Source: Bacteroidetes bacterium GWF2_29_10
Lineage (GTDB): Bacteria > Bacteroidota > Bacteroidia > Bacteroidales > GWE2-29-8
DNA length: 40,171 bases
Direction: 5' to 3'
Assembly (NCBI GenBank): GCA_001768555.1
Contig: MEOD01000046.1
Location: forward strand, 1-40,171
Positions 15,212-15,829 of this stretch are shown in pieces. A program made the position numbers and the translations under genes. How positions within the stretch are numbered: position 1 is the stretch's first letter; each line of letters opens with the position of its first letter. The notes under the pieces were generated by a model. The model saw nothing but the letters and a program-made list of their open reading frames with translations. It was not told the origin of the DNA and did no database searches.

Positions 15212-15829
15212 ATGATGGCAGATAATTTTAAACTAAATAAGACATTCACAAATTCCCCTCCGATGCAGGGGTGTCCGCAGGACGGGGTGGTTAATAATTA
15301 TAAAAACAAAAACATTATTGCCATAATTAACGATATTTCAATAAGACGTAATTTTATTGAAAATTTACCACATAATCCAGAACTTAAACAATTAGCCAAA
15401 GATAAGAGGCATGAGGGCATTTTATCAGAAGTTTTGTTTTGGCAACAAGTGCATAAAGGGCGTTTTTATAATATAGATTTTGATAGGCAAAAAATCATAG
15501 GTAATTATATAGTTGATTTTTATGTAAAAACATTAGGACTTGTAATAGAAATTGACGGAGGGAGTCATGATGAAAAAACAGAGTATGATGAACAAAGGCA
15601 GAAATATTTAGAAAGCCTCGGTCTAAAAGTCTTTAGAGTAGATGATATTGATATTAAAAATAATATTGAAAGAGTTATGGAGGGATTGGAGCAATATATT
15701 ATTAATGAATATGGTGAGAATATAGAAACTACAAAATTTCTACCCTTACAGTCTCAAGATAATATAGGAACCACCCCGTCCTGCGGACACCCCTCCATCG
15801 GAGGGGAATTAGAATGTAATAAAATTTAA
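15212..15829 (+). CDS. DUF559-type endonuclease-like protein
   Basis: LAKDKRHEGILSEVLFWQQVHKGRFYNIDFDRQKIIGNYIVDFYVKTLGLVIEIDGGSHDEKTEYDEQRQKYLESLGLKVFRVDDIDIKNN. Both inverted repeats are translated within the ORF. Confidence 0.85.
   Translation: MMADNFKLNKTFTNSPPMQGCPQDGVVNNYKNKNIIAIINDISIRRNFIENLPHNPELKQLAKDKRHEGILSEVLFWQQVHKGRFYNIDFDRQKIIGNYIVDFYVKTLGLVIEIDGGSHDEKTEYDEQRQKYLESLGLKVFRVDDIDIKNNIERVMEGLEQYIINEYGENIETTKFLPLQSQDNIGTTPSCGHPSIGGELECNKI
15251..15810 (+). mobile_element. DUF559 ORF enclosed by 42-bp inverted repeats
   Basis: Left 15251-15292 AATTCCCCTCCGATGCAGGGGTGTCCGCAGGACGGGGTGGTT; right 15769-15810 is its reverse complement with 1 mismatch. Inner hairpins CCCCTCC/GGAGGGG and GTCC/GGAC. 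Confidence 0.7.

What the first reader, a model, noticed from the sequence alone, without database searches (positions are those of the whole stretch)
15251..15810. DUF559 nuclease ORF packaged between 42-bp near-perfect inverted repeats: candidate self-contained mobile element
Left and right ends match 41/42 as inverted repeats, each end can itself fold (CCCCTCC-GAT-GGAGGGG; GTCC-TGC-GGAC), and the only gene inside is a Vsr-like DUF559 protein. A truncated second copy of the left end lies at 16263. This layout (small nuclease plus palindromic ends plus gene-less derivatives) parallels REP/RAYT systems, but with a PD-(D/E)xK-like nuclease instead of a Y1 transposase. I know of DUF559 ORFs as common hypotheticals in Bacteroidetes; that they define a transposable or homing unit is inference.
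Basis: partly seen in the sequence, partly recalled or inferred. Interest (0 to 1): 0.85.

Follow-up and report, generated by a model that had tools for sequence, protein, structure and literature searches.

The report
Nuclease element with triplex-forming ends
A small DNA-cutting enzyme gene sits between two mirror-image, foldable DNA ends, and the same pairing recurs in many bacteria, even in-frame inside essential genes, which suggests an unrecognised kind of mobile DNA and a possible driver for the long-orphaned 'BoxC' repeats.

Summary
The inverted repeats and DUF559 ORF are real: a 558-bp unit (15252-15809). Each end is a hairpin (CCCCTCC-GAT-GGAGGGG), a second stem whose pairs co-vary between genomes, and a third block (GGGGTGG) matching an intrastrand triplex. 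This is general. Of 110 Bacteroidota DUF559 loci, 76 have significant flanking inverted repeats (control 1/150), and 54 have an exact triplex motif on both sides (3% of control windows have one). The third block tracks the first across more than 20 sequence variants. End type co-diverges with the nuclease; gene-less end pairs and lone ends exist. In-frame copies lie inside single-copy leuS (two species) and pheT, and in metH, hsdR and type ISP genes; relatives have the empty ISP and pheT sites. Active-site residues are kept in 111/112 copies; the predicted fold best matches homing endonuclease I-Bth0305I. DUF559 genes in other phyla also adjoin BoxC-like triplex repeats, a family whose mobiliser is unknown. 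I found no publication making the link. Most likely this is a nuclease-driven element whose nuclease acts on its own structured ends. Mobility is inferred from comparison: no cleavage, excision or target duplication was shown, and the window's own empty site was not found.

The parts
15252..15809 (+). the element: ATTCCCC...GGGGAAT, 558 bp (a multiple of 3), nuclease between inverted ends
   Evidence: boundaries set by the conserved ATT|CCCC outer edge of lone ends in other genomes
15252..15292 (+). left end: CCCCTCC 15255-15261 / GCAGGGG 15265-15271 hairpin (one mismatch), second stem GTCC 15273-15276 / GGAC 15280-15283, third block GGGGTGG 15284-15290
   Evidence: sequence; covariation in relatives; triplex rule
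15769..15809 (-). right end, inverted copy with perfect first stem: CCCCTCC-GAT-GGAGGGG-TGTCCGCAGGAC-GGGGTGG on the minus strand
15212..15829 (+). 205-aa ORF; start codon lies outside the element and the frame reads through both ends (N-terminal SPPMQGCPQDGVV, C-terminal TTPSCGHPSIGGE)
   Evidence: N-terminal end-peptide in 103 of 120 closest database proteins
15383..15691 (+). DUF559 (PF04480) nuclease core with intact E-D-ExD-H active-site residues
   Evidence: fold match to I-Bth0305I
16216..16367 (+). second, truncated copy: perfect left end (16263-16303) plus the first ~65 bp of the nuclease unit
   Evidence: 88% to 15205-15356
15178..15230 (+). duplicate of the ISP gene's own 5' region (GTTARCATAAATTCTCAAAA also at 16384; start-codon segment also before 16420), giving the nuclease ORF a captured start
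   Evidence: D3, D5
15810..16262 (+). tandem array (185-bp unit = 79+106) with eroded first-hairpin remnants AATTCCCATCCATCGAAAAGGAATT
16420..19647 (+). type ISP restriction-modification gene, uninterrupted here; loop 19144-19173 is the site that carries the element or a lone end in relatives

Best explanation
A self-contained nuclease element. A Vsr/EDxHD-type DUF559 nuclease gene is carried between two inverted ends, each able to form hairpin 1, hairpin 2 and a purine-motif intrastrand triplex. The nuclease probably recognises its own ends when they are extruded as structured DNA and cuts at or near them; host break repair then copies or joins the unit, or just an end or an end pair, into new places (REP/RAYT-like in output, homing-nuclease-like in enzyme). 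The ends usually read through as codons, so insertions into loops of host proteins can stay in frame without splicing. Shown by comparison: the linkage, the end architecture, co-divergence, gene-less derivatives, occupied versus empty sites, in-frame insertion and a conserved active site. Inferred: that the nuclease cuts the ends, that a triplex forms in the cell, and that the unit moves by break repair.
For: 41/42 inverted ends. The same ends bracket close relatives in other Bacteroidota. Flanking inverted repeats at z>5 in 76/110 DUF559 loci (25/30 of the closest) versus 1/150 control placements. Exact triplex motif on both sides in 54/110 loci versus 60/2000 single control windows. Third block follows the antiparallel triplex rule 181 times versus 51 for the parallel rule. 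Second-stem covariation: 26 double-change cells versus 6.0 +/- 2.0 shuffled, at most 3 when slid. Ends co-diverge with the nuclease between taxonomic families: Spearman 0.27, 0/300 permutations. Genomes with close DUF559 carry the exact end pattern in 15/23 cases versus 18/277, p=4e-11. Gene-less L+R pair sharing 97 bp with the nuclease copy beside it (L035). Same ISP loop empty in more than 20 genomes, holding P0001-like elements, a different DUF559 clade, or lone ends in others. Single-copy pheT occupied in G141 and empty in two congeners. Single-copy leuS occupied in two species. metH occupied. Active site kept in 111/112. Top fold match I-Bth0305I, a homing endonuclease (also by sequence).
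Against: No target-site duplication, excision product or near-identical recent copy was found; in the ISP loop about six codons of linker are missing rather than duplicated. The window's own empty site was not found. 34 of 110 DUF559 loci lack a significant inverted repeat. Some genomes hold ends without a detectable close DUF559 (for example G164, about 19 copies). The co-divergence correlation is modest and partly phylogenetic. The structure model of the nuclease has mean pLDDT 76 only.
Confidence: 0.68

Rival explanations
1. Homing endonuclease gene in the strict sense: the nuclease cuts the empty host allele (ISP loop, hsdR, leuS) and is copied in by recombination; the ends are only translatable, foldable padding.
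For: Closest fold is a homing endonuclease. Same ISP loop occupied in L008-L011 with the same left junction; same hsdR site in three families; leuS occupied between the same model positions (234/238) in two species.
Against: Strict homing does not explain lone ends and gene-less pairs at unrelated sites, nor why ends co-diverge with the nuclease.
Confidence: 0.22
2. The triplex/hairpin repeats are an older REP/BoxC-like family moved by another enzyme; DUF559 genes merely hitch-hike between pre-existing repeats or are trapped by repeat-mediated rearrangement.
For: Lone ends outnumber nuclease copies; some genomes have ends only. Holder et al. 2015 tie BoxC/TM repeats to genomic instability (PMC4666352).
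Against: Bracketing is specific to DUF559 (76/110 versus 1/150), the architecture recurs with different end sequences in different DUF559 clades, and ends track the nuclease.
Confidence: 0.15
3. A housekeeping Vsr-like mismatch-repair or DNA-structure nuclease (as proposed for Caulobacter VsrA, which carries a DUF559 domain) that protects cells from its own triplex repeats; nearby repeats are its regulatory or target sites, not transposon ends.
For: VsrA is reported to cause an SOS response when a cytosine methyltransferase is lost (PMC12907096). Active site strictly conserved.
Against: Patchy distribution (123/300 Bacteroidota genomes, several copies in some) and in-frame insertion in aminoacyl-tRNA synthetase genes are hard to explain for a housekeeping gene.
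Confidence: 0.1
4. Intrinsic-terminator hairpins around a hypothetical gene, with no further meaning.
For: Hairpins are common in intergenic DNA.
Against: Ends lie inside open reading frames, are 41/42 matched, share a third block and co-vary; controls rarely show this.
Confidence: 0.02

Closest known systems
BoxC / PIT / TM intrastrand-triplex repeats (Holder et al. 2015, PMC4666352)
   Same: Hairpin plus third purine block; dispersed, often as inverted pairs of two types; beside DUF559 genes in several phyla, including on the 3' side of E. coli ycjD.
   Different: Described as orphan repeats: the authors report no mobility gene near E. coli copies. Here the motif is the inverted end of a nuclease unit and often has a long, co-varying second stem.
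REP sequences / REPINs with RAYT (IS200-like Y1 HUH) transposases (PMC3116915)
   Same: Structured ends around one small enzyme gene, inverted gene-less pairs, lone remnants, co-divergence of repeats and enzyme.
   Different: The enzyme is a Vsr/EDxHD-type nuclease, not a Y1 HUH transposase; ends follow a triplex rule; in-frame copies inside protein genes.
EDxHD homing endonucleases (I-Bth0305I, PDB 3r3p)
   Same: Best fold match and a distant sequence match; embedded in conserved host genes.
   Different: I-Bth0305I is a phage group I intron enzyme with a long DNA-binding region; here there is no intron or intein, only short structured ends.
Rickettsia palindromic elements
   Same: Palindromic elements inserted in frame in protein genes without splicing (from general knowledge).
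   Different: RPEs carry no nuclease gene; no sequence relation was tested.
E. coli YcjD and N. gonorrhoeae NGO0050 (PDB 3hrl)
   Same: Same DUF559 family; BoxC/TM-like repeats adjacent.
   Different: Repeats on one side only (ycjD) or as direct repeats (N. gonorrhoeae), so these look decayed or differently arranged.

Membership tests
REP/RAYT (Y1 HUH) system | Y1 HUH transposase gene | tested here: not met
   Only PF04480/PF18741 (PD-(D/E)xK type) found in the ORF
REP/RAYT (Y1 HUH) system | dispersed palindromic repeats, gene-less inverted pairs, same repeats flanking the enzyme gene | tested here: met
Conventional insertion sequence (DDE, serine or tyrosine enzyme) | transposase or recombinase of a known class | tested here: not met
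   no such domain in the ORF
Conventional insertion sequence (DDE, serine or tyrosine enzyme) | target-site duplication | tested here: inconclusive
   none seen in the ISP and pheT comparisons, but no near-identical empty site was available
EDxHD / Vsr-like homing endonuclease | fold and catalytic residues | tested here: met
   Foldseek top hit 3r3p, TM-score 0.81 by target length; E, D, ExD and H retained in 111/112
EDxHD / Vsr-like homing endonuclease | cleavage of the cognate empty allele | not testable with these tools
   needs biochemistry
Intein or intron | splicing domain or ribozyme removing the insert | tested here: inconclusive
   Pfam scan of the metH copy shows only DUF559/MTES_1575 between the host domains; introns were not searched with Rfam
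Intrastrand triplex repeat (BoxC/TM class II type) | Y block, complementary R block, third block with G for C and T/A for T, antiparallel to R | tested here: met
   right end perfect; left end one mismatch in R; rule tested over 110 loci
DUF559 (PF04480) | profile match above the curated cut-off | tested here: met
   92.3 bits versus cut-off 20.6

The most novel reading that the evidence does not exclude
DUF559 nucleases are the founding enzymes of a separate class of bacterial mobile elements with intrastrand-triplex ends, which propagate in trans the BoxC/TM-type repeats found across many phyla and can persist as in-frame, unspliced inserts in essential proteins.
Probability: 0.45. Interest if true: 0.93.

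Novelty: categorically new. Interest (0 to 1): 0.86.

Why it matters
BoxC/TM triplex repeats have been known since the 1990s without a known source of spread; a recurring nuclease partner makes the question directly testable, including in E. coli K-12 (ycjD plus 23 reported copies). It would add a class of mobile DNA built on a Vsr/EDxHD-type nuclease rather than a transposase or recombinase, give a function to a widespread 'unknown function' family, and provide natural examples of about 130-200-residue nuclease insertions in leucyl- and phenylalanyl-tRNA synthetases and methionine synthase genes that stay open. The rating 'categorically new' rests on the enzyme class and the end rule, and on a literature search limited to open-access papers.

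Tried and rejected
Looked for target-site duplications around bracketed units, in the lone ends of G212/G280/G012/G096/G164 and in pheT and ISP empty/occupied comparisons: none convincing. A 14.4-kb composite of joined flanks was built but not searched, as it was too long to enter. An hsdR empty-site search in the order of G133 gave only the occupied copy. S. meliloti pSymB comparison (L243) gave no clean empty site. The fixed 49-bp pairs in G251/G291 lie in hsdM genes and are adjacent R and L ends, not a new element type. A first structure model from 8 sequences was too poor (pLDDT 61). Paper searches on DUF559, BoxC, ycjD, palindromic in-frame insertion, EDxHD and dispersed repeats found no report of the link.

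Full report
Observation. The two arms are real (15251-15292 and 15769-15810, 41/42) and enclose one gene, a DUF559 nuclease (PF04480, 92 bits). The natural unit is 15252-15809: 558 bp, a multiple of three, starting ATTCCCC and ending GGGGAAT. The ORF (15212-15829) begins and ends outside the arms and reads through both of them. The genome has one DUF559 gene and lone copies of the end on contigs C31, C67 and C84. A second copy at 16216-16367 holds a perfect end plus about 65 bp of the start of the unit, 88% identical overall. The segment 15178-15230 resembles the 5' region of the downstream type ISP restriction gene (shared GTTARCATAAATTCTCAAAA and ATGACAATAGATAA-like repeats), so the nuclease appears to use a captured start.

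Architecture of an end. Each end consists of CCCCTCC-NNN-GGAGGGG, then TG, a second stem, then GGGGTGGT. In 34 distinct 36-nt ends of one length class from the P0001 clade, 98.4% of paired cells pair. The second stem shows 26 double-change cells against 6.0 +/- 2.0 in shuffles (0/500) and at most 3 when slid. In genus g5 and other genomes the second stem is long and different but still pairs, for example TCAAAAATTCAAAGAATTTTTGA or GGCAGGCGAAGCCTGAC. The last block is not a Watson-Crick partner of the first. It equals the first block with C replaced by G and T by T or A, in the same direction, which is the rule for the third strand of a purine-motif intrastrand triplex. Over 110 DUF559 loci the antiparallel rule is met 181 times and the parallel rule 51 times among 422 hairpin-strands, with more than 20 different block pairs such as CCCCTCC/GGGGTGG, CCCCCTT/GGGGGAT, TCTCCCTT/AGAGGGAT and TCCCTTCT/AGGGATGT. 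That a triplex forms in the cell is inference.

Generality in Bacteroidota. In 300 genomes drawn across the phylum, 123 have a DUF559 relative at E <= 1e-10, and 33 have the exact P0001-type end pattern (2 have the backwards-read control). Genomes with a close relative of this nuclease (E <= 1e-28) carry that end pattern in 15 of 23 cases, the rest in 18 of 277 (Fisher p = 4e-11). Testing flanks without assuming any sequence, 76 of 110 DUF559 loci have an inverted repeat at z > 5 (25/30 for the closest, 35/56 and 16/24 for more distant ones), against 1 of 150 random placements in the same loci. An exact 7-7-7 triplex motif lies on both sides in 54 of 110 loci; single 320-bp control windows have one in 60 of 2000. 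Among pairs of loci from different taxonomic families, end similarity rises with nuclease identity (shared end k-mers in 44% of pairs at 30-40% identity, 90% at 60-70%, 100% above 70%; Spearman 0.27, 0/300 permutations). Some of this is shared ancestry.

Gene-less derivatives. In L035 (G223) a unit of about 170 bp beside a nuclease copy shares its first 97 aligned bases and the right-end type, an internal-deletion derivative. Similar inverted pairs without a gene occur in L012, L027 and several times in G164. Lone ends are scattered in unrelated flanks in G212, G280 and G012.

In-frame insertion and empty sites. In 21 of 112 DUF559 loci the frame stays open far into flanking host sequence. Hosts identified from the translated flanks include type ISP restriction enzymes, hsdR, pheT (L026), leuS (L209, L058), metH (L206, Pfam), and hemF- and hemD-like genes. 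leuS in G053 and G319 has no second intact copy, and the insert lies between the same model positions (234/238) in both. pheT in G141 is single-copy and occupied, while congeners G197 and G077 have the uninterrupted gene. In the ISP gene the loop before FAPIDILDYIYAVL is empty in more than 20 genomes and in the window's own ISP gene. It holds P0001-like elements in L008-L011, another DUF559 clade in L253, and lone ends in L012 and L022. Database proteins confirm the fusion: five of the 120 closest hits carry both Type_ISP_C and DUF559 domains, and 103 of 120 begin with the translated left end. No target-site duplication was seen; about six codons of linker are missing in the occupied ISP loop. 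These comparisons show occupied and empty orthologous sites, but not the event itself.

The nuclease. The residues E, D, ExD and H are retained in 111 of 112 loci down to about 32% identity, including copies inside host genes. The model (mean pLDDT 76) matches the catalytic domain of homing endonuclease I-Bth0305I best (TM-score 0.81 by target length), then N. gonorrhoeae NGO0050 and, more weakly, Vsr. Sequence search gives the first two as well.

Other phyla. DUF559 genes in Cyanobacteriota, Deinococcota, Alphaproteobacteria and N. gonorrhoeae records are flanked by inverted or direct BoxC-like repeats (for example L243 z 77, L239 z 52, L229 z 43, L242 z 33 for inverted and L226 z 67 for direct repeats). 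My strict triplex rule finds a motif on at least one side in 10 of 18 and on both sides in 5 (control 11/400). E. coli K-12 ycjD, a DUF559 gene next to fabI, has BoxC-like repeats on its 3' side only. Holder et al. [quoted passage not shown] coli pairs are inverted and always of two types, and state that no mobility genes were found near them. A gene-less L+R pair is what my model predicts for such pairs; that is inference.

Judgement. Best reading: a nuclease-driven element whose ends are structured DNA, working like REP/RAYT but with a homing-type nuclease. It is not a member of REP/RAYT (no Y1 HUH enzyme), nor of known insertion-sequence classes. Whether it is strictly a homing endonuclease gene is open. 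The open-access library may miss relevant papers.

Noticed in passing
12655-14978: Upstream AAA ATPase (AbiLi-like, AriA-like) and RloB/AbiLii-like pair, probably an abortive-infection type defence system; with the ISP gene downstream this is a defence island.
   Followed up: partly
15790-16265: Tandem array of 185-bp units (79+106) with eroded hairpin remnants between the nuclease element and its truncated copy.
   Followed up: partly
L153-L157 (G251, G291): Adjacent R and L ends at a fixed 49-bp spacing inside hsdM genes, repeated in several places of a genome, suggesting repeat-mediated rearrangement of restriction loci.
   Followed up: partly
G164 (L140-L152): About 19 copies of the end, several as ~125-bp inverted pairs, but no close DUF559 relative found in that genome.
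   Followed up: no
L219 / L034 (G107): Five head-to-tail copies of a 39-bp end beside a nuclease copy; tandem doubling of ends also in L013, L015, L029 and L063.
   Followed up: no
E. coli fabI-sapF region (L228, L244): ycjD (DUF559) with BoxC-like repeats occupies the place of the eefRABCD operon in some lineages (PMC12817139).
   Followed up: partly
L230, L234, L237, L238: Cyanobacterial plasmid DUF559 genes sit beside or inside DUF1156 and BREX PglX genes, again defence-type methyltransferases.
   Followed up: no
L213, L215, L216: DUF559 copies fused in frame to the N-terminal side of hemF-like genes in three genomes.
   Followed up: no
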